From Alloascoidea africana (lineage: Eukaryota; Ascomycota; Alloascoideomycetes; Alloascoideales; Alloascoideaceae), in contig JAKTTT010000041.1 in NCBI GenBank assembly GCA_030581615.1, positions 143,561 to 207,560 of the forward strand: a DNA stretch of 64,000 bases. Direction: 5' to 3'. The notes beneath the pieces are model-generated. The model did no database searches. It saw only the letters and a list, made by a program, of their open reading frames with translations, and had not been told where the DNA came from. The position numbers and the translations under genes were made by a program. Below are positions 26,912 to 63,906 of the stretch, piece after piece. Each line of letters starts with the position of its first letter. Within the stretch, counting starts at the first letter, position 1.

Positions 26912-27808
26912 TCATGAACTATAGAGCAAATATTTGACTTCTCCGCTGGTTACTCCCACTGTGCAACCGTCAGTTCCATCGCCCTTAAACGACCCATCTT
27001 CATATACGCATTCCCCACTTACTTTCGCAGAGTCATCGACACCTTCAATTCTAACATTGAAATTTGCCTTTTGATTACTGTTAGGATTTGAAGTTATTGA
27101 TAAATAACTAGTCCCTCCAACTGAACCTGCACCAAAGATTAGAGGAGCCCAGTTACCAATCGTTCCATCAGCTGTTCCCCAGATGCATCCATCTTCTGCT
27201 GAGACACCTGCGTTATTGACATAGTATTGCGCTGATGTTTTTAGACCTTTCCACTTGAAATAGGAATCTGAATCAACAACTGTCAGCCTTTGACTTCCTC
27301 CAGCTGAAACAAGAGTAGGCACATTCATATTTTCGCTTCCTGGATAATCTGTTCTGCAAATGCTCACTGAACTATCAATCTCGGATACCACTTCTGCTGA
27401 ATCGATGCCCCACTCACAGAGATTTTCACTCTCTGTGTTACTTCTATACAAGTATCCGTCTTTACAGTAAAGCCCACCAACTGTTTGACCAGAAGCGGGC
27501 TGTTCACTTGGCCACTGTGTCTTGGACATGCCTGGCTGGCATGCGTATGAACAGTACATGCCATCTTCACATTTTGTGCCTGAAGTCCCTTCTTCGTCTG
27601 AAATTGTGGTCCAACCGCCGAAACCCATCCAATCTACTGGAATAACACCTTGACCTGAAGGAAAAGTAGAGCATTCAATTTCGCCATCCTGAAAATTTCC
27701 ACTATTGCTGGCATCTCTTTTAGTAACACTCTGTTGATTTAACACTGGTATTGAAAGTCCATTGGTTGCCATATAGCCAAGGAAAAAAAGCAAATTCAGG
27801 GTTTTCAT
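26912..27808 (-). CDS. Secreted SUN-family cell-wall protein (Sim1/Uth1/Sun4/Nca3 type)
   Basis: 298 residues from the ATG at 27808; the open frame extends nine codons further to a TTG that would spoil the signal peptide. Residues 1-19 form a signal peptide; KR at 30-31 is a likely Kex2 site. The SUN domain fills the rest: [65 protein letters not shown] and [17 protein letters not shown], with the usual cysteines. SUN proteins act in wall remodelling and septation, and some bind or cleave beta-1,3-glucan. The long Ser/Thr-rich linker found in S. cerevisiae SUN proteins is missing, so this is a short form. It has 3.4 kb of gene-free DNA upstream. Confidence 0.93.
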
Positions 27809-30800
27809 TTTCAAAAGGAAAGGATTTTGTTTCAAAAGATTGTTGCAACTGATTGATGTTCTAACGAATGTCTGGTTCAGAAGATATAACTTGTTTAGTT
27901 AAGAATTTTTAGTTGATATCATTGCAGAAAGAGAAATTTATATGCTTTCTGGTTTTTTTAATAAAAGTATTATCCTCTTCCTTTGAATTGGGATCTATCA
28001 AGCAAAGGAAAAGGGTATACTGCATGCAACTGTTTAATGTTGGTGCTCTGGAAAAAGGAATCACGAAGAACAATTTCAAGCAAAAACCAAAGAATTAATC
28101 AGGCTTAGCTGGAAAGAAATGTCTTTGAGCTTTTTCATGTTTTTTTCTTGTCTTTTGTTGACCGTTACATATGTTCCTGAGATGCATTTTTCATACATAC
28201 ATCATAGTTCTTCTGGTGCATTACAATGGTATCTTTGATCTTAAAACCTGATCCTTACTTCATTGTAAATCTTAACTTGAGTATTGTCTTACCCAAGGTG
28301 TGAATTGTCTTAACGACTGCAAGCAGTCTGCAAACCGTAAGAGAATTCATTTACAATGGAAAAGCAAAAACCAACATTACAGAACACTGTGAAAGTACAA
28401 TGTCGAACGTTTAATCACTACTGAATCCTAGCATACTTGATTTCAATAACGCTTCAATGATTGTTTTGTTAATTCCATGTACCTAAGAAGTGATTCAGCT
28501 TTGCGGTAAAGGAATAGAATTTTAAGCGGCTTTTGGTGCCTATACTCAAACACCAATCTACATTCAAATGCATTTTGCCGAATGATTAAAGGAAATTTGC
28601 CTCGATAAATCAACCATTACATGTATACGGTTGGAGGTCATTGTAGCTGTGCCTAATGAGAAGGCAGGATCAAAGCGAAAATGACCTTAAAGAACCAGGG
28701 GAAGAAAGGTCAGATACGACCTATCAACTTTTTGGACAGAATAATTAGTTTGATTATACCCTTATAAAGCTTTCATCTTCCCTTTATGATCTAATAAATG
28801 ATCATAAGACGTTTTTTTAATGGGGCGGCTATATGTATTTTAAGTGATATCGTAACAAGTGCTCCTTCCTGAAATGATCCAACTTTTTGATTCACTTAAA
28901 GTCTGCTCATTTCGGTGTTTAATCATCAAGTATAATATTCAAACACCCTCTTATACTCCCAAGCTTATTACCGTGGTTCACCAACGAAAAAGTCCAATCC
29001 AACATATGTTCAGGGCAGCTTGAAAGAACTATTTGATACTAATCTTTTCAGAATCTCCTGACATTTTTGAATCTTCTATGATGCTTGGACACTATTTCCT
29101 GACTTTCCACGAGCACTACACGCCGAACTTTCGCTTATCCCGTGTCAAAAACAACCAGATGATCGACTACTCCAAGTTTCCTTCATATTTATACAGTAGA
29201 ACCAAATATTTACCTACAGCAAGGCCTCTTTCCCGTCCTATCCACGTTTCTGCTTGGTCCTTCAGCTCTCGCAAAGCCTCTCATTTACATAGCAATGTTG
29301 TTTGTGCTCAGCACACAGGTTGGTCAGTTCGTGCATTAAAGAATGAGTTTCTTTATGGTCAATCTCGCTTAAATAGGCGTTCGATAGCTGCTCTGGTATT
29401 AGAAACTTCTTTCTTTAATGTAGGCAGGCCGAGATAGACCCTAGGGAGTGTTTGCGTCAAAAAGTCTCGATAGTCTGTTTTTCGTAGTTCAGCTCAAACC
29501 TTTGGCATTTGCCCTTTACTTTTTTACAAGCATGCCAGAAAGCCGAAACCTGTCTATTCCAGGAGCATTATGAGTTCACACTTTTTCAGTAGACTTGATA
29601 CCCCAAGTGTGTAGAAACGGACCGTCACCACTGAAGCTAAGCACTGACTGTAATCTTGATAGACTGTCACACTGTTCTGATCTTCCCTGTGGTTCAAAGG
29701 TTTTTTAAGACAACCAGCTACTTTTTACAGATGACCCATTTCTCTTTAAGAAACTTATAAGTTTTATCACAATAGCTTTAATATTAGCATTAACGCAAAA
29801 GGAATGTTGTTTCCACCACAAGGCCACTGTTACAAATTGTCAAGCATTAGTTTGCCCAATACTGTGCAGATTCTCCATCCTTCCCCCAAACCGCAAAACT
29901 AAAGAATAGAGGGTCCGTATATGGGAACAAAGAGCAGGATATTAAAGCGGACTAGAGGACATTACGCTATCAGACGATATAGCAAAGACAACGGCAGAGC
30001 TCAAATTCAAGGAAGTTTTGCGCAAATGCCCGTTATTTTTTTATCAAACTTTAATGATTTTTTTCTGTGTGTAAATATTAAGGTACAAAAACATCAAATT
30101 TGTAATTAACCTCTAGAAACTAGTAAGATCCCGATACTTATTTGAAACCCATCAAACAGGAAGAAACTTTTGAGTCTAGCCTGGCAATCACGTTTTAAAT
30201 CAAAGCACAAAAAACAAATCAAACTATGTTATCGGTGGTGTAGAATAACAATTGCAGTGCCACATCTTCACAGCTGCGTTTCAACACTAAAGTAAATATA
30301 ATTCCACGATAGGCGAACAGAAAAAGGTTTTAAACTCATTATTAAAATACTGGAGATTTTATTTCAACCTATGATTAACTTTCAAATTTTCTCCGCAGGA
30401 GTGAAAAACCAGATATACCAGACATTGGTAGCCTAACAGCCACACTTTGCCAGGACATTCAGGAACAAAGTTGCCGAGCTCTTTTAATTTTAAACACAAA
30501 AACAGATCTGGGGTGTGTTTCGGCGATTACATTGCTATGCATTCTCCTTGTCCGATAAATAGATCTTTACTTTCTTCGAATTTTAGGATGACAATAGAGC
30601 TTTTTAAGCAGCCACTATCGGATAACAGTCCTAATGGATTGCTTCTTGTGGCCTAGGCTCGGGTACATAAACTTCACAGAGAAGTGTTTTATCGGTTCTC
30701 TCTCCATCTTGATAGAATTTGCTCATCAAAGCTTAGACTGTGGCTACGACTGCGTCTGGTTGCCCAGTTCAAACTTGATAGGAAATTGCATTTCTTAAAT

Positions 30801-31202: not shown

Positions 31203-34092
31203 TTAAAACCCAAGCGACCGTATTGAAGGAAGCTTGATTTTTTGATCCTCTGATGCGCTTTCCTGGGCTTCTTGTGTGCTTTTCCCTTCCCATACTTTCA
31301 GTTCTTTCTCATTGGAATCAGAAGACGTTCCCACAGGAACCTGTTTGGTGTGGAATGTCTGCATAGATTGATTGGCAACCGTCCTGTGATTGTCGTTGGA
31401 AGAACGAGGAAATGATAGCGGCGGCAACAAAAATTGTGTGGTCGAAGAAGCTTCCCCATCTGAATTTTTACCTTCCCCAGTCTTGGAAAGTGGGAATGAA
31501 GAATCAAAAGAAGGTAGAAAGCTTGCTTTACTTTTGGAATTCGTAGAAAAAGACGGAGTCCGTATCTGAACGCCTAAAGGACTTGGGTGTGGTTGCAGAG
31601 AAATTGGGGGGACTGCATGCGCAGATCCAAATGGAGAATGCGATATGGAACTAGGTGGATATTCTCTGAGACTTTTAATAGTAGATATTTCAGAGTATTT
31701 TGCCAGACTTCCAGTTAAACTGCGCTGCAAGTCTGGAAATGCAGTAGCGTCTGTAATGCTAGGTTTCTGCCCCATCATGTTGGAGTCGCCAAAAGTCTGT
31801 GATGATAAGAAAAAGGGGTTTTCGACAGAAGTACCGGCGTTCAAGTTTATTGGAGGAATAATATGATATGAGTTAGGAGCACTTCTTGATCTCCCCACAT
31901 TGTTGCTGTAGTTTGATCTTAACTCCTTTGCTTGCGGCTCATTATCTCCTTTTTTAACATCCATCATTTCAACCCGTTCACCTTCGTGATCAAACTCATC
32001 AGTAAAGTAGAAACTGCGCCTCTTTGTTCCGGTTGTAGGGGATATCATCAGAAGAGGAGCACGTTGATATTCTGATCGTAATGAAGACGAAGGTGTGGTC
32101 ATCTGTGTCGGTTTCTGATTGAATAAATGGCTTCCAATTGTCTGTTGAGGTTGAAGAACTGGAAGTTGTGCACTTGGTGAGTGAGGGTCAAAAAAATTCT
32201 GGGGCTCTCCAGCATTGATGTTTTTCACCAGATGTACTCCACTCGCAGGTAGAGATTTTCGGATTTCCATATGCTGCTGGTACTGCTGATAGCTTTACAA
32301 TCGTTAAAATAAAAAGCCAAATCAAAACAACAAAACTATGACTGACCTTTTTCTGTTTCCCTCTTTTCTCAGCCTTAACCTCACTCCCTGTTCACAGACA
32401 AGTCTGGTTAACGGGGTAGAAGGCAAAGCACCTGTGTATCTCTTGGGAGTAAATACTATTAAAAAGCGTGTTAGCGATTCATCCAGCTTGATGTAAGCCC
32501 TGATTCAAAAATTCCTGGGTTGCATCTGCCGACAAGGATAAATTCAATGAGGAAAAATGGGTTTCCTAAATAAGGAATAATTCTAGTAGCTCACCTGTGA
32601 AGTAGTCAGAAAATACTGATTGCTTGTATTTGAAGGATGCTCCCCTAAGATCTGTTAGTAATATGTCGCACTTTAGTTCGTTTGATTAGCATCTTACTCC
32701 TGCTCATATAAAGAGAACTTCAACCGATATTGCCCCGTGTTCAACATCGACAAGTCACCGAAAACAAAAAAAAACCCAAGCCGATCTTTATCTTGTACTT
32801 TATGCCCTGAGCTCACTCTGATCCCTATTAGTGGGTTAGTTGAGCTAAAGTTTGTTGTGTCTTTGCCTAAACTATTCTTTATCTCAAGAGTAGGATTAGG
32901 CGTTTCTGAAGTGCTGCTAGCTTTGCTACTGACATTGCTACTCGGCTTTGCCCTTAACATTTTATTCTTTTTATTTTCCTTCTTTGAAGTGGTTGAAATG
33001 AATGACGAAGAAGATGAGGGCGATGATAGCGAGGAAGATGACGATCCAACGGCTGTGTTCAGATCAGAGATTGGCAATCTTTGTCTCTCTTTCTGGTCAG
33101 GCTCTTGCTCTTCCTGCCCTTGCCCAAACTCTGGATCTGAGGTAGAATCAATATGGCATAACATTATAAAATGTTTGGTGAATAGCCAAGGGGGATTATA
33201 CTCTAAAATATGGTTAATTATTGACGCTTACATTACTTTGTCCGTGAAAATTCGTACCATTTGGCGTATTATCATGAACCGCGCCGATTGGACTATTTGC
33301 GCTGATCACTTTTGAAGCATTAAAGTCCCTGAAAACGGCCATCTTGACTATTGGTGGCGGGTCTATCGTCCTCCTATCAGCAAGTCCGCCCTTGTCGTAT
33401 CTTAAGGTGACTTTACATCGAATCGGTTGCTGTACCACCCTCAGACTGTACGGGAGTTCTGTTCCAAGCCCATGACTCTGTACCTGATACTGATTTGGAG
33501 TTGGAATAGGCCCTTGAGGGTTTATTGACAAAACATGCTGAGCCGGCACTTGTTGGTAAAGACGAAGATCCTGATGAAACATAGGAGGGGGAGTAGATGG
33601 ATTCCCAGGTTGCTGATGTGCTCCATGTTGCACAATGGGATAGCTTGACACACCACGAGCATCGCTTTCTGTCACCATTGGTCTTTGACCTGGGATGTAA
33701 CCATACTCTTGAGTCTGGGTATTTAAATACCTAGATGTTAAAAGATTGCTGTTGTTTAGTATGGATGGAGTTATCTGGCGATTTCTTGTGTTTGTTCTAC
33801 GCAGTTGGTCTTTCGAACTGTATTCTTTCTCAATGTTTGATTCTCTTACTAACCTCAAGTTTGAAGCCCCATAGCGAGAGTTTTGATGAAACGTTATAGT
33901 GTTTAGACTGAGCGACGTTGCCAAGTTAGGATCTACTGGCACAACCTGATGCTGAAGTCGATTGTTGTTGTCGCCATCTGGTCTCAGGATTGAGTCTGAA
34001 AGACGACTGTCATTATTGAAAGCTGATGAGTTAACTTTTGATCCTTCTATTCCTTTCCGCGAAGAAAAGATATTATGATCGCCAGAAGGCAT
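31203..34092 (-). CDS. Velvet-domain transcriptional regulator, VelB-like (5 exons)
   Basis: Predicted exons: 33258-34092, 32698-33202, 32595-32644, 32347-32455 and 31203-32292, 862 residues in all. Introns are 55, 53, 139 and 54 bp. Introns 2 and 3 have good signals (GTAAGA/TACTAAC/TAG; GTGAGC/CGCTAAC/TAG). Donors of introns 1 (GTACGA) and 4 (GTCAGT) are weak but keep frame. The velvet domain is split: YSLRVVQQPIRCKVTLRY and DRRTIDPPPIVKM in exon 1, DRLGFFFVFGDLSM and YRLKFSLYEQ in exon 2, then FTPKRYTGALPSTPLTRL and EQGVRLRLRKEGNRK in exons 3-4. A Ser-rich insert of about 130 residues interrupts the domain, as an insert does in VelB. The 220-residue N-terminus and 360-residue C-terminus are low complexity. 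Velvet proteins bind DNA as dimers and control spore development and light responses in filamentous fungi. Confidence 0.85.
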
Positions 34093-37000
34093 TTGTTAGA
34101 CAGCGAAACCAATTTTGGAACTTCACAAACTCCCTAGATATCTCTGAAAAGAAGCGTCCAGGCAAACCCAAGGCACGCTAAAGCTGTTTTAGAAGGAAGG
34201 CTCGAAGGGAAATAACTTCAACTCAAGGGTAGGATGTGGATGGCTTGAGTGTGTGCGTTCTTTCATAAAGTTGTATGCTGAGCTCAATCAACAGATTAGA
34301 GTAAGCTCAAGCAAGGAGGAAAACCCCTCTATTTGTCCAAACCAGTATGTGACTGATCACTCCCTGGGCTAGTGTACTGGAATAGATTGGCTCATTAATC
34401 CCAAAGATATGGGAGGGGATACTAAAACAGGCAGAGGACTCCGGTATGATAAAAGCACGGAGGGCAAGAGCAGGAGAATCGATCAGTTCAGGACCAAGGT
34501 CGAGGAAGTATACGCTTCCTGTCGATGGAGATGGAGAAAGCTAGAGGAGGTCCAAGGAGAACAAAAGTATCGAGGGTTTGGTGGATCAAGAGAAATAATA
34601 AAGAAGTAGGTGAAAGCAGTATAATAAATTATTGTTTATGTAAAATACGAAAGAGGACAATACACAATATCTGATTGTTAAATCATACAATAGCGCCAAC
34701 TGAAAATGGCAACCGTGGGAATGGCTATCAGAACCCGAAAATAAATCTGGCGCACAGAACACTTTTCACCCGTGACCCAGTATCTGGGATGACTGGAAAG
34801 GAAAACACGAGCAGTTAGCCACAGTTTCCGAGTAAGTTTATGACAGACTAGGTGAGTTCGAGAGAGGGCGATGATTAAAGGGTAGAGTGAATGGAGGTTC
34901 TCTCGATAATGCACCTTTTGAGGAATCTGGATTCCAAAAAGCCGAAGAGCTCTTCCTTTTCGACCCCCTTCTTCTTTCTCTGATTTTTCCCTCTGCTGGA
35001 TACGCCACAGTAATGCCAGTATCATACCTTGAGGGTTTACCAAAGAATGCATTAGTTTTAAATGTCGGTTTGGGAATCGGCAGACCGGTACTTCACGAGC
35101 CTAAGAGTTAATACCGAATGCTATTCTCTTCTTTTTCTTTCTAAGACCTTACGCACATATACTGATTATAACGCTGTCAAGCTGCGTGATGTCTTCATGA
35201 TTACTACGACTTGCTCGGGTTCTAGTCTCTCCATAAGGTTCGCGGCCATGTTGGAATGTGTGGTAAAAGTGGGACTTGAGAATCTCCAAAAATAAAACAA
35301 AAACACAAAAAAATATGCCATTATCAATTGAGGAAACACATCACTATGCCTCCAAACGTTGGTAGAATTCTGGGGTTTTCAAAGTCCGATTTCTTAAGTT
35401 TAGGTTATAATAAACTGACTAACCTCGAACCACAGAAAGGATCCGGTATTAACCCAACCAGGCGACCTGGACATTTATTTGGAAGATAGAAAAGAATTAG
35501 AACAAGAACGGAAGAGGAAGGACCCTGAATCAAACCAAAGATCCGTTGTAATATAACTTTCTGGCCGTCGGGCAAAGCTTCAAGCCATTGCTTCCCATTT
35601 TGGAACGTTCACGTTCGCTCTTTGTCAATCCACAGTTTTATCCAGGAAATGCCTTTTTTCCCAACTGAATGCCAGTGACAACCTCAAACTTAAGTTTTGG
35701 AAAGATTCTGAGTAGAATGTACAGTAGATATTGATAATTTTTAATCTGATGTGACTATTAACTTGTTCCAAACTTTGGGGTAGTGGACGTAAACATTATT
35801 AGTTACGGCGGTTCAACGATCATCTGCTTTATAAAATTTGTGGGAGTAAACGGGAAGAGAATAAAATTTTTATTCAAAGGTCAAATATTACACAACAGGA
35901 AAACATTGTTACCTATATTGTCTACATTCTATTCTGTTAGCTAAGCTTACAAATCTGTTTTAGCTTATCAGTAATTAAGGGATGCTGGGATATAGTCAAC
36001 TTAATAGACCTTTGGAAAGCTAACATTGCGCACTATCTAGTAATTTTGGTGCAGGTAACATGACAGCTTTAATTTCATAGAATGAATTTACTAATGGGCT
36101 TGCTCCACAATCTGAATTTTCTCCAATCAAGTCGAGAAAATTTTCCTTTTTCTAAGGCTTGATTTGAGTATTAAAGGGTTTTCAATATTACTTGACGGTA
36201 AAAAGATTCAAATAAAGTCTAGATTCCCAAATATGAGGTATTTAATAGGGGCCTCCAGTTTTAGAAAAAAATATCTTACAGGCTAATAATTCTCAGACTG
36301 AGCATGAAGTTACTGTCCAGTAAAACGAAGCTCAGGGTGCCCCATGTGTATATATCCTATACACTCGGTGGTATTTGACTCACTAGTTAGGAATTATTGA
36401 ACAAACTTGGTGCTCTTTCTTTCAAGACTTTTGACTATTGTCAACATATGGATATGAAATTTCTGAGGTGTGAAACTTTGTTTAACGAAGAATGAAGCTT
36501 CATGCATATCCAGCACTAGACTGAAAAGAAACTAGCATAAAGGAAATGCTCGGCAACGTTATGTTTCAGCCCCACGGAACACTCAGCCTTTCCCTTAAAA
36601 CAAGGGAAAAAACAAAAAATACGCTTACAGTCTGTATCCCTCATTATTGTATAATAAACCTTTTACCAGTCACGCCTGTATGGTAAAAATTTGAAAACCG
36701 AGCAAATATGAGCGCTCTGGTGGTAGAAAAGATCATTCATCTCCAATGCCTACATTGAAATGCAATCGCCGGATAGTCTAAATCTTCATGCATAAAATAT
36801 ATGGTCAATTAAGTAACTATTTGCAAAGTTAGATTTTTGCCATTTAAGGTTCTCAACAAGTAGTATATTCTAACTGATTTTCATATTATTGGAACATCTT
36901 TGGTTTTGAAAGAATTATTGTTTCGTCTCCGCGTTTAAAAAGACAAGTTTACTGGATGAATAAGATTTTTAAAGAGTTGGTAAAATATCAACATAGAATC

Positions 37001-54900: not shown

Positions 54901-57840
54901 TCATGAAAATCCATCTCCTTGTAGCAACATTTGTCTTTGTTGAAATGCATTTTTCCTTCCAGGTCCATTGGTAGGTCCATTGGCAGGTGCATTGTTATTA
55001 AACCTCGGTGGGTTTCCAGGCCGCTGATTACCTCCAGGAGAATTATGCTGTGGCATTGGTGCCGAATTCCCGGGGCCTGATGGCCTTCTTGGCTGCTGTC
55101 TGGGATGCATTGGCTGTTGTGGCATCGCTTGATACGAGGGTCCCGATTCTGGGGCTGGTCTCCTTGGTTGTGAATTCCCGTACCCAAAATTTGGATTTCC
55201 ATTCCAGCCAGGCGGCGGCTGTTGCTGATATGGACGTTGTTGTCGCTGCTGAGACTGTTGATGAGGCTGTTGAGGATGCCGTTGCTGTTGCTGCTGCTGT
55301 TGCTGTGGTGGTGGCTGTCGCTGCTGTTGTGGTGGTCGATAATTTGGAGGTCTTGGTCCACCAATTCCAGGACCAGGTTCTCGAGGTCCCTGTACCCTTC
55401 CGTTATTAATATTATAACTCTGCTGGTAATTCACATCTTCAACATCCGAGATTTCCAGGGGATTATTCCGTGATCCTGCTTCATAATTTCCATTTTTTGG
55501 GTAATTGTTCACACCACTCCTCTGATAATTCTCTTCATCGGAAACATTTATTGGCCTCGGGCCTTCTGGACGTGACCTATTTTTCATCGCTGTGTCCATA
55601 GATTTTGAGTTTTGCTCCACAGGCATATACGAAGGGTCAAAAATATCATCCTCACTCTCTGATCCAATTGTTATTGAATTGTTGAATTTATGATTACCGG
55701 TAGGTTCGGATATCGAGTCCGAACTCGAACTGGTCTCTGCATAGTAGTCGTTGAAAATTTCTTCCTCGCCAACCGCTCTGTTATTGTTACCAGGTAGTGC
55801 TGAAGCTGACTGTCCTGGATACACTGTGGGGACTCTATTCCGTTCGGTTTCTTGACTGTTGGCACTATAAGTCGACTGAGAGTGGCCAGACTCTGCATAG
55901 CTTGGTTGACCATTGTCATCACGATAGCTCATATAAATTTCAGAGAAAATAGACCTTTTGGGCTTTGTATGTTCTCCAGTGCTCAAGTTCATCTCTCCAA
56001 GTTTCTCTCGTAAGTCTTCTTCATTATTGGAATTTTGGTGATGCGATACTGGCTGTGGAGAGTAAGGAACTGGCTGTCTCATACCTGGATTCATGTCCCT
56101 GTCTCCGTTCACAGCAGAGGGCAAGGGTCCACCAGTTGGGTAGGGCCTTGGCTCGATCAACGGGCCTTGGTTTCTATTACTTGGCTGGGGTCTTGGGCCA
56201 TATCCATTATTACTATTCTGTCCCTCCTGCTGTGAGTACATGGTATCATGCATTGGTTCTCGTGGTCCTGTAGGCCGTTGTTGCTGGCCATTAGGATAGG
56301 GCAATTTAGGCTCATATCCGTTGGCATTTGCGATCGCATTCATGTATGGGTTTGGAGCATGTCTCGGATCTTGTTGAATGGGTGAAGGGCTTGAAGAATA
56401 TATGCTTGATTTGTCATCGCCGGCAGAAAGGCTGGGGAAGAAACTTGATGATGGGGTAGAGCTTGAACTATTTGAATCTCCTCCATTGTTTATATAATTC
56501 AGCTCTTTGAGATCGTTTACATTGCCATATCCCTCCCATCCCGAGTCCAGCTTCTGTCGTAATATCTCTTTTATTTTGGCAAACCATTCGCTCCAGCCCC
56601 AGTTAAGGCCTGCTCCAGTGCAGCTGTTGATCATTACTTTGATGTCTGAAAGTTCCAAATGCCCGTATTTGGGCAGTAAAGGTAGGCCGAAGAGAAGAGA
56701 GTCCGGATCTCGCTTATCGGCATTTAATGCTTGTGGTCGTCCATATAGCTTGAACGCATCCATCACGGGGATGAGCCATCGGATCAGGGTTTCAAACCCT
56801 GGGACAGCCGGATGAGGTTGAGGCATCATGAAAATATTCCCTGTTTTGCTGGGTTCGCCAGTGTTAAAGACTATTGTGGCCTCTAACTTTAACAAGGTGG
56901 AAGTTTCAATCAGTATAGGGGACTGCGGGTAGATTGCATATGTATCAGTGGCATTGATAATCGTTGCCAGTAAACTTTTTTTCTGCTTTTTCTCGCTCTC
57001 ATGAATTTGTATACACCCCTTTTTGTCACCATTTTTCTTCTTCTTTCCTGCATCGCTGGGAGGTACAACAACAGCAAAATATCGTTTCCATGGCATGCCG
57101 GAGCCTAGCCGCATCATTATCCACTCCTCTTGTTTGAATCTTGTCTCTGCCAAAAGCACTTTGATATCACCCAGTTGTTTGCCTTTGGCTGAAAGTAGGG
57201 ATGCAGTGTACGCCTTTTGAAATTGCGTGTACTCAAAAACTGCCAGTCTGAAGGCTGTGTGCCACAAGCTGAAAGCCTCTGATGTAGGAGTTTGTAACAA
57301 AAACCGATTTTTACTTGTAGTTGATATGATGATGGTATTCTCTAATTTCCCCTCATTAGCCGTAGACATAGACATGCTTTTGTTTGCCTGGATAACAGAA
57401 TCGGAAAGATTGATATAGATCGGTTTGGGGACATTAGGACCAGCTTGTGGCACACCATTCCTATCCACACAATCAACTTCGAAAACTGCCAACTGAACAC
57501 CTTGAAGAATCCCATACTTTTCGACCCATTTGGAACTTTTCTTGATGTTCGCACTACTGCCTGAATCGTTGCTCATTTCGCAAAGATACATAAAGTAACC
57601 ACTATAATACTTTCTCTTTCCATGGGCCGTGAGAAGTCGCACTATGGGTACAAGCCCTGGATCCACATCAGCCAGGTCATTGCCAACCTTGTTTGAGCTT
57701 TTACTTGTAGAACTGGAGCTACGAGTACGGCCAGAGCCTATCGTTGTGCTTGCAGATGTGTTTGTACTTGCATTTGTGTGTGAGGACAGGGGCGAAGACG
57801 AGGTCGATGGAGACAAAGGGGTTCTGTTTGGGAAAGACAT
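54901..57840 (-). CDS. CAF120: Caf120/Skg3 family PH-domain protein
   Basis: 979 residues, ATG start. The first 55 residues are Ser/Thr-rich. Residues about 60-215 form a PH-like domain typical of Caf120 and Skg3 (LLTAHGKRKYYSGYFMYLCE, KWVEKYGILQGVQLAVFEVD, NRFLLQTPTSEAFSLWHTAF). A second conserved block follows (LLAETRFKQEEWIMMRLGSG, MPWKRYFAVVVPPSD, and KYGHLELSDIKVMINSCTGA near 395). The rest is Asn/Ser/Pro/Gln-rich with a polyglutamine run (codons at 55200-55340) and probably disordered. In S. cerevisiae Caf120 associates with the CCR4-NOT mRNA deadenylase; Skg3 is its bud-associated paralogue. One ancestral copy is expected outside the whole-genome-duplication group, so the symbol stands for both. 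Confidence 0.88.
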   Translation of the reverse strand: MSFPNRTPLSPSTSSSPLSSHTNASTNTSASTTIGSGRTRSSSSTSKSSNKVGNDLADVDPGLVPIVRLLTAHGKRKYYSGYFMYLCEMSNDSGSSANIKKSSKWVEKYGILQGVQLAVFEVDCVDRNGVPQAGPNVPKPIYINLSDSVIQANKSMSMSTANEGKLENTIIISTTSKNRFLLQTPTSEAFSLWHTAFRLAVFEYTQFQKAYTASLLSAKGKQLGDIKVLLAETRFKQEEWIMMRLGSGMPWKRYFAVVVPPSDAGKKKKNGDKKGCIQIHESEKKQKKSLLATIINATDTYAIYPQSPILIETSTLLKLEATIVFNTGEPSKTGNIFMMPQPHPAVPGFETLIRWLIPVMDAFKLYGRPQALNADKRDPDSLLFGLPLLPKYGHLELSDIKVMINSCTGAGLNWGWSEWFAKIKEILRQKLDSGWEGYGNVNDLKELNYINNGGDSNSSSSTPSSSFFPSLSAGDDKSSIYSSSPSPIQQDPRHAPNPYMNAIANANGYEPKLPYPNGQQQRPTGPREPMHDTMYSQQEGQNSNNGYGPRPQPSNRNQGPLIEPRPYPTGGPLPSAVNGDRDMNPGMRQPVPYSPQPVSHHQNSNNEEDLREKLGEMNLSTGEHTKPKRSIFSEIYMSYRDDNGQPSYAESGHSQSTYSANSQETERNRVPTVYPGQSASALPGNNNRAVGEEEIFNDYYAETSSSSDSISEPTGNHKFNNSITIGSESEDDIFDPSYMPVEQNSKSMDTAMKNRSRPEGPRPINVSDEENYQRSGVNNYPKNGNYEAGSRNNPLEISDVEDVNYQQSYNINNGRVQGPREPGPGIGGPRPPNYRPPQQQRQPPPQQQQQQQQRHPQQPHQQSQQRQQRPYQQQPPPGWNGNPNFGYGNSQPRRPAPESGPSYQAMPQQPMHPRQQPRRPSGPGNSAPMPQHNSPGGNQRPGNPPRFNNNAPANGPTNGPGRKNAFQQRQMLLQGDGFS

Positions 57841-62928: not shown

Positions 62929-63906
62929 ATGGAGAACCAACGCAATTCCGACTCTCAGGAGAATACGCCCCAAAACATTGAACAAGTTATTTTACAAGCC
63001 TTGAACCAACTGCTGGCAGGAGGTGCGGTTCATACTCAGTCCTTGGAAGAGATGACGAACGCGCTGAAGGAGGTGACTACCAGCATGGCTCAAATGTGCA
63101 ATAGCGTATCGGCGCAGGCACAAAAAGCAATCAGGGAGCTAAAACATCAACGGGTGGAAGAAACGGAGCCCAAGATTCCTTATAAAGTAGAGCTAAAGAA
63201 ATTCAACGGAGAAAGGGACATAAAGGAGGCAAGCAACTGGCTCCGAGAACTAGAGGCTACCTTCGCCGTTTACAAGGTAGTATCAACCGTCAGACGCTTG
63301 GAGTACGCACGATTTGCTCTGCACCCATCCTGCTACAACTGGTTCGACGAGCAGGTGAAAGATGTTGACGGCTGGGAAGGATTCAAAGCCGCCTTCAGGA
63401 AAAGGTACTACCCTGAGGACTACCTCGGGGTGATATTTAGGAAAATGTGGGGCTCACAACAAAGAGGGAGCGTTGCGAGCTACATCGAGTACTTCAGACA
63501 ATGGGATGACACACTTCCGGCTGGCGAACTCACATTTGCACACAGGAAGGAGATGTTTGTGGAAGGACTTCACCCATCCAATAAGGCCAATATTACCAAT
63601 GCCATCAGAGGTGTGAGCTCCTTGGAAGAGGTGTACGCGATTGCCAGTCAATATGAGGGGCCCTACTATAGTGGTACTACAAGGCAGACTAGTACACCTT
63701 CTCAACCCGTCCATAATGACCCGATGGAAGTGGATGCCATCAGACTGGGAAATGACGAGCGCGCACGCCTCCGCAGAGAAGGAAGGTGCTTTGGTTGCAA
63801 GGAAAGAGGCCATGTGATCAGGTCATGCCCAAAGAAAAGAGCTAACGTTAAATTAATGCCCTTATGGGACGAGCAGGAAGAATTAGAACCAAAAAACGAC
63901 GAGTAG
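62929..63906 (+). CDS. Ty3/gypsy-type retrotransposon Gag
   Basis: 325 residues, ATG start, intact. The N-terminal 75 residues are polar and helical. A retrotransposon gag (capsid-like) domain follows: PYKVELKKFNGERDIKEASN, NWLRELEATFAVYK, SCYNWFDEQVKDVDGWEGFK, AFRKRYYPEDY and SVASYIEYFRQWDD. A CCHC zinc knuckle, CFGCKERGHVIRSC, lies at residues 287-300. It packages element RNA in virus-like particles. The frame ends at TAG (63904-63906), and a +1 frame takes over for pol. The first 354 bp after 62981 are repeated in inverse orientation to the left. Confidence 0.93.
   Translation: MENQRNSDSQENTPQNIEQVILQALNQLLAGGAVHTQSLEEMTNALKEVTTSMAQMCNSVSAQAQKAIRELKHQRVEETEPKIPYKVELKKFNGERDIKEASNWLRELEATFAVYKVVSTVRRLEYARFALHPSCYNWFDEQVKDVDGWEGFKAAFRKRYYPEDYLGVIFRKMWGSQQRGSVASYIEYFRQWDDTLPAGELTFAHRKEMFVEGLHPSNKANITNAIRGVSSLEEVYAIASQYEGPYYSGTTRQTSTPSQPVHNDPMEVDAIRLGNDERARLRREGRCFGCKERGHVIRSCPKKRANVKLMPLWDEQEELEPKNDE

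What the first reader, a model, noticed from the sequence alone, without database searches (positions are those of the whole stretch)
31203..34092. A velvet-family regulator in a budding yeast
The spliced gene carries all the blocks of the velvet domain (LRVVQQP, DRR-IDPPP, FFFVFGDLS, YRLKFSLYE, FTPKRYTG-STPLTR, EQGVRLRLRK). Velvet proteins are well known from filamentous ascomycetes and basidiomycetes, where they couple development, light and secondary metabolism; to my knowledge they are missing from S. cerevisiae and Candida. All neighbours are ordinary Saccharomycotina genes, so either this lineage kept an ancestral velvet gene or gained one. It could be a master switch for sporulation or filamentation in this yeast.
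Basis: partly seen in the sequence, partly recalled or inferred. Interest (0 to 1): 0.85.

Follow-up and report, generated by a model that had tools for sequence, protein, structure and literature searches.

The report
Velvet gene family in budding yeast
The gene is a real velvet-type gene regulator in a budding yeast, one of seven velvet genes found in that genome; the family was already reported from some yeasts, but this genome shows an expanded set and no sign, in limited tests, of its usual partners.

Summary
Confirmed: window 31203-34092 (minus strand) encodes a five-exon, 862-residue velvet protein (PF11754, 136.3 bits, E 2.2e-39). The genome is Saccharomycotina by ribosomal protein uL3 and reads CTG as leucine. 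The 23.18-Mb genome holds seven velvet loci: a VelB, a VeA, a divergent VelB-like gene, and four paralogues, the window gene among them, that form one clade. The clade has a VosA-length dimerization region, lysine at VelB position 71 and a C-terminal [KR]LPS[IL][RK]xLG peptide; the window copy also has a VelB-length variable region with a serine-rich insert. A SUN-family gene lies downstream of all four, pointing to block duplication. No polyketide synthase, no above-threshold NRPS domain and no phytochrome were found; LaeA and white-collar tests were weak and negative. Velvet genes in part of the Saccharomycotina, and twelve in Saccharomycopsis, are already published, though a 2026 review calls them absent. 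Whether the clade is VosA, VelC or its own could not be decided. Verdict: new member of a known family, of moderate interest.

The parts
33258..34092 (-). Exon 1: start codon at 34092, 214-residue low-complexity N-terminal region, and the N-terminal DNA-binding part of the velvet domain (YSLRVVQQPIRCK...DKGGLADRRTIDPPPIVK)
   Evidence: translation; Pfam Velvet from residue 215; a stop lies two codons upstream of the ATG in the stop-to-stop list
33203..33257 (-). Intron 1, 55 bases, donor GTACGA, acceptor TTTTAG; phase 1
   Evidence: placed by homology with L014 and L015, which have a phase-1 intron at the same point and continue EYNPSW / EYSPSW as here EYNPPW; the Pfam score rises from 125 to 136.3 bits with it
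32698..33202 (-). Exon 2: variable region with a 103-residue insert (26% Ser), then first part of the dimerization region (NPLIG...FFFVFGDLSMLNTGQYRLKFSLYEQ)
32595..32644 (-). Exon 3 (50 bases)
   Evidence: phase and homology with L014 and L015
32347..32455 (-). Exon 4: FTPKRYTGALPSTPLTRLVCEQGVRLRLRKEG, end of the velvet domain
31203..32292 (-). Exon 5: C-terminal region of about 360 residues ending in KLPSIRSLGF and the stop codon
   Evidence: the C-terminal motif is shared by all four paralogues and had no other hit in the window and the loci fetched up to then
26912..27835 (-). SUN-family gene (PF03856) downstream of the velvet gene in the same orientation; part of the duplicated velvet-SUN block
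   Evidence: Pfam E 1.1e-96; shared synteny

Best explanation
The window gene encodes a velvet-domain transcription factor of a budding yeast. It belongs to a group of four paralogues that arose by duplication of a velvet-SUN gene block, in a lineage that also keeps a VeA and a VelB. Shown by sequence: velvet domain, group membership, retention of the residues that published work found essential for DNA binding and dimerization (one Arg replaced by Lys). Inferred: the protein dimerizes through its VosA-length dimerization region, most likely with the genome's VelB, binds DNA through its basic N-terminal part, and acts on target promoters through the long disordered flanks and the C-terminal KLPSIRSLGF peptide. 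Inferred more weakly: it controls cell form, spore or hyphal development rather than secondary metabolism, because I found no polyketide synthase and no above-threshold NRPS domain.
For: Pfam 136.3 bits; solved velvet structures by phmmer; essential residues: VelB R71/R80/R81/G240/L331 are K/R/R/G/L here, with roles taken from PMC13389560 (abstract and passages) and PMC12077163 (abstract and passages); same clade as L012, L014, L015 with support 100/100 and 100/99; canonical VelB (PDB VelB 3.1e-58) and VeA (PDB VeA 5e-20) in the same genome; third codon positions vary most in 6 of 6 pairs among the four paralogues; SUN gene downstream of 4 of 4; ketoacyl-synthase search gave 7 matches that I read as one mitochondrial-type synthase, two fatty-acid-synthase frames and four thiolases; the only NRPS-type match is 22.9 bits, under the 30.6-bit cut-off.
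Against: No expression, interaction or binding data. Loop A is four residues longer than in VosA and VelB. Position 71 is Lys, where 85% of velvets have Arg (PMC13389560). Disorder was judged only from composition. The place of the clade among VosA, VeA and VelB is unresolved, so a VelB partner is by analogy. Other kinds of secondary metabolism (terpenes and others) were not searched for.
Confidence: 0.75

Rival explanations
1. The clade is simply the Saccharomycotina VosA (or VelC) orthologue, duplicated, and does what VosA or VelC does in moulds (spore viability, restraint of asexual development).
For: VosA is the best structure match for two of two group members tested; the spacing from VelB G240 to L331 is 73, 73, 73 and 69 residues in the group, 74 in VosA, 90 in VelB and 96 in VeA; a clade with VosA is not rejected, p-AU 0.455. 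PMC10845976 names Sac-Tap-VosA and Sac-VelC clades.
Against: A clade with VeA is equally not rejected (p-AU 0.531); the branch to the group is long (1.1 to 1.4 changes per column); the variable region is 84 to 157 residues against 47 in VosA. No VelC sequence was available.
Confidence: 0.45
2. Horizontal gain from a filamentous fungus.
For: Patchy occurrence of velvet genes in Saccharomycotina (PMC10845976, passages).
Against: Seven loci on five contigs; introns at shared places in the paralogues; third-position GC 0.32 to 0.39 in the group against 0.33 to 0.44 in five window neighbours; VeA and VelB are both present. The intronless, GC-rich VelB (third-position GC 0.87) is the one member for which this stays more open.
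Confidence: 0.08
3. Decaying relic of an ancestral gene without function.
For: Neighbouring paralogue L012 could not be modelled cleanly through its middle exons.
Against: The window copy has open exons over 862 codons with consistent phases, keeps the essential residues and the C-terminal motif, and third codon positions vary most.
Confidence: 0.05

Closest known systems
VosA (Aspergillus nidulans, PDB 4n6q)
   Same: Best structure match by sequence; dimerization-region spacing 73 against 74 residues; no VelB-type linker.
   Different: 38% identity over trimmed domain columns; variable region 157 against 47 residues; loop A four residues longer, position 71 Lys; 862-residue protein with the domain at residues 215-495.
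VelB (Aspergillus nidulans, PDB 4n6r)
   Same: Variable region of like size (157 against 152 residues) with a serine-containing insert at the same point.
   Different: 33% identity; the genome has its own VelB at C14 that is 61% identical to VelB; shorter dimerization linker; a clade of the group with VelB and that gene has p-AU 0.0523, not firmly rejected.
[quoted passage not shown] twelve genes in Saccharomycopsis fibuligera in PMC5106798)
   Same: Same subphylum; same family; expansion also seen there.
   Different: Their sequences were not at hand, so orthology was not tested. This genome reads CTG as Leu; that Saccharomycopsis reads it as Ser is recalled, not tested.

Membership tests
Velvet family (PF11754) | Match to the velvet profile above its curated cut-off | tested here: met
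   136.3 bits against 25, E 2.2e-39, profile 1-236 of 237
Velvet family (PF11754) | Basic DNA-binding cluster at VelB R71, R80, R81 (PMC13389560) | tested here: met
   K, R, R: two identical, one Arg to Lys
Velvet family (PF11754) | Dimerization residues VelB G240 and L331 (PMC12077163) | tested here: met
   G and L
Velvet family (PF11754) | Dimerizes and binds DNA | not testable with these tools
VosA | Falls with VosA in a tree | tested here: inconclusive
   p-AU 0.455 for a clade with VosA, 0.531 with VeA; one VosA reference only
VosA | Short variable region (VosA domain without a long insert; Pez-VosA domains average 166 residues in PMC10845976) | tested here: not met
   157 residues between the positions of P87 and G240, VosA 47
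VosA | All four loop-A basic residues K37, K39, R41, K42 (PMC3876986, passages) | tested here: inconclusive
   the two next to DPPP are R and R and one Lys aligns with VelB K78, but the loop has four extra residues, so two positions cannot be matched safely
VelC | Falls with VelC in a tree | not testable with these tools
   no VelC sequence in the collections searched; the viral-contig scan found no velvet relative
VelB | Groups with VelB and matches it best | tested here: not met
   VosA beats VelB; another locus is the VelB (3.1e-58); tree test borderline, p-AU 0.0523
VelB | Disordered insert inside the velvet domain (PMC12614781) | tested here: met
   103-residue insert, 26% Ser, on the disordered side of the charge-hydropathy line (0.37 against 0.42); composition measures only
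Saccharomycotina genome | Core gene closer to budding yeasts than to moulds or fission yeast | tested here: met
   uL3 bit scores; organism of each chain recalled

The most novel reading that the evidence does not exclude
Some budding yeasts carry a velvet subfamily of their own that joins a VosA-length dimerization region to a VelB-length disordered variable region and ends in a conserved KLPS[IL][RK]xLG docking peptide; it spread as a block with SUN cell-wall genes and, together with VeA and VelB, runs without LaeA, light receptors or secondary-metabolite synthases, as a pure regulator of cell form and sporulation. That would show what velvet does when stripped of its metabolic role, and would break the published rule that only VelB carries a disordered insert.
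Probability: 0.3. Interest if true: 0.7.

Novelty: new member of a known kind. Interest (0 to 1): 0.45.

Why it matters
Velvet proteins are studied as links between light, development and toxin-type metabolism in moulds. A 2026 review (PMC13006574, passages seen) still says that velvet proteins are absent from Saccharomycotina and ties the loss of LaeA there to the lack of metabolite clusters. A yeast genome with seven velvet loci, and with no polyketide synthase, above-threshold NRPS domain or phytochrome found, contradicts the first statement and allows the developmental role of velvet to be asked apart from the metabolic one, in organisms that may be easier to handle than moulds.

Tried and rejected
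First splice model: intron 1 taken from 33236 to 33137; dropped because it removes a stretch (EYNPPWLFTKHFIMLC) that all three other paralogues have; the corrected model scores higher.

Assignment to VosA: not accepted; the tree tests do not separate it from other placements. The two tree runs also differ in how they join VosA, VeA and VelB.

Search for outside relatives in viral contigs: 37 stretches matched a pattern, none encoded a relative. The one genome-contig scan (bacteria and archaea) was not used.

LaeA: 19 methyltransferase matches, of which 15 were fetched and read and 4 were not; none looked like LaeA to me, with the LaeA motif (GTGIW) recalled and no LaeA sequence at hand. The 11 GTGIW pattern hits (control pattern 4) include two in frames over 100 aa, neither methyltransferase-like. 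Weak evidence of absence only. White collar: 3 hits of a recalled flavin-binding motif, all in frames of 31 aa or less; an intron in the motif would hide it. Phytochrome: 0 matches.

Whole-genome duplication: suggested by pairs of core genes but not tested. The PH-domain neighbour (window 54904-57840) has six other loci, none on C12 or C14, so its paralogues give no support for duplication of the wider region.

Species: not identified. No collection here holds named yeast genomes.

Full report
What was checked. The finding claims a velvet regulator at 31203-34092. The minus strand carries open stretches 33214-34095, 32694-33227, 32322-32504 and 31203-32294. Joined at splice sites these give a velvet protein. 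My first model scored 125 bits with Pfam Velvet. Comparison with paralogues showed that its first intron cut out part of the domain; the corrected model, with introns at 33257-33203, 32697-32645, 32594-32456 and 32346-32293, gives 862 residues and 136.3 bits, E 2.2e-39.

Whose genome. The window lies on contig 41 of an unnamed assembly of 23,180,953 bases in 138 contigs. One of its two uL3 genes scores 727.8 to 698.8 bits against the ten best chains of the PDB, then 655.7 and below; the entries I can place from memory are budding yeasts at the top and Chaetomium, fission yeast and Neurospora at 653.1, 647.9 and 643.0 bits. In the other uL3 gene, 9 of 10 CTG codons stand where the reference has Leu and 1 where it has Val, so CTG is read as leucine. 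The window's catalase is closest to entries 6rjn, 2xq1 and 6rjr, then 1a4e, two of which I recall as yeast; this is weaker evidence. Third-position GC of the velvet gene (0.39) lies within that of five window neighbours, 0.33 to 0.44. Neighbours include a formin, a Timeless-type protein, cytochrome heme lyase, catalase and a SUN protein.

The rest of the family. A whole-genome search gives 10 matches at E 0.001 or better, 14 at E 10 or better, all in the same seven loci. I fetched these and modelled six of the seven to the end. L010 is a VelB: 292 residues, no intron, PDB VelB 3.1e-58, 61% identical over trimmed columns. L011 is a VeA: 997 residues, PDB VeA 5e-20 against VosA 5.9e-14. L013 is a second, divergent VelB-like protein (VelB 6.6e-20, others about 1e-4) that has Trp in place of L331 and, in my alignment, Asn in place of R80. 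L014, L015, L012 and the window gene form one clade (100/100, 100/99). L012 could not be modelled cleanly through its middle exons and may be decaying.

Anatomy of the window protein. Residues 215-495 are the velvet domain, after 214 low-complexity residues and before about 365 more that end KLPSIRSLGF. All four paralogues end in [KR]LPS[IL][RK]xLG within five residues of the stop, and a scan of the window and the loci fetched by then found this pattern nowhere else. Between the positions of VelB P87 and G240 the window protein has 157 residues, VelB 152, VosA 47, VeA 55; between G240 and L331 it has 73, VosA 74, VelB 90, VeA 96. So the dimerization part has VosA length and the variable part VelB length. 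The insert itself is 103 residues, 26% Ser, against 36 to 60 in the paralogues, 13 in VosA and 115 in VelB; two composition measures put it on the disordered side, though the same charge-hydropathy measure puts VelB itself on the line and the yeast VelB insert on the ordered side, so it is a crude guide. Of the residues reported as essential, R71, R80 and R81 (PMC13389560, abstract and passages) are K, R, R, and G240 and L331 (PMC12077163, abstract and passages) are G and L. Lys at 71 is shared by the four paralogues and L013.

How it probably works. Velvet domains bind DNA and pair with each other (PMC3876986, passages). With both surfaces kept, the window protein most likely pairs, probably with the genome's VelB, and binds promoters. 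In VelB the insert selects VosA over VeA as partner (PMC12614781, section 7 and passages); an insert of like size at the same place could tune pairing here too. These steps are inferred.

Class. VosA is the best structure match for two of two group members tested, but the tree does not decide: p-AU is 0.455 for a clade with VosA, 0.531 with VeA and 0.0523 with VelB plus L010. Only one sequence per class was at hand and none of VelC. PMC10845976 (sections 4 part 1, 10 and 12, and passages) names VosA and VelC clades in Saccharomycotina; this group may be one of them.

How the family grew. A SUN-family gene stands downstream, in the same orientation, of all four paralogues: about 3.4 kb away at the window gene, 3.8 kb at L015, 7.3 kb at L014 and 12.5 kb at L012 (my arithmetic). 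The genome has nine SUN matches. In about 30 kb around L014 and L015, velvet and SUN were the only strong matches to the window region. This fits duplication of a velvet-SUN block with later loss of other genes. Pairs of other core genes exist (uL3, fatty-acid synthase frames, a methyltransferase), so a larger duplication is possible; it was not tested.

Partners. Ketoacyl-synthase: 7 matches, none read as a polyketide synthase. NRPS condensation domain: one match at 22.9 bits, under the 30.6 cut-off, in a 1342-residue frame that I did not read. Phytochrome: none. LaeA and white collar: not seen, with weak tests. So the classical partners and targets were not found; for LaeA and white collar this is not proof of absence.

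Prior art. Velvet genes in part of the Saccharomycotina: PMC10845976. Twelve velvet genes in Saccharomycopsis fibuligera: PMC5106798 (passages). Stated absent from budding yeast: PMC5309816 (passages, 2017) and PMC13006574 (passages, 2026). Searches of the paper library for velvet with Saccharomycotina, Saccharomycopsis, Geotrichum, Lipomyces or Yarrowia listed no functional study of a velvet gene in a budding yeast among the rows shown; the library is open-licence papers only.

Verdict. A real, probably working velvet gene; a new member of a known kind in a group where the kind is known but patchy and contested. The surprise lies in the expansion, the mixed domain lengths and the missing partners.

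Noticed in passing
L010 2673-3551 (G000 C14, VelB): The VelB gene is intronless and sits in a GC-rich island (up to 0.70 GC against about 0.30 to 0.43 in the first 2.1 kb of the locus; third-position GC 0.87).
   Followed up: partly
L023/L024, L017/L018, L032/L033: Pairs of core genes: uL3 (98% in translated alignment), fatty-acid-synthase frames (87%), a methyltransferase (78%) on different contigs; possible genome duplication or hybrid origin.
   Followed up: no
window 62929-63903: Ty3-type gag frame (PF19259, E 4.1e-15) at the right end of the window.
   Followed up: no
G000 C41:47433, 123437 and 170517: Nine SUN-family matches in the genome, three of them on the window's contig.
   Followed up: partly
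L012 (G000 C41:136.7-138.6 kb): Velvet paralogue about 36 kb from the window gene on the same contig, with middle exons that do not join cleanly; perhaps decaying.
   Followed up: partly
L013 (G000 C118): Divergent second VelB-like gene with Trp at the position of the dimerization residue L331.
   Followed up: no
window 1-64000: No tRNA gene found by ARAGORN (bacterial setting) in 64 kb.
   Followed up: no
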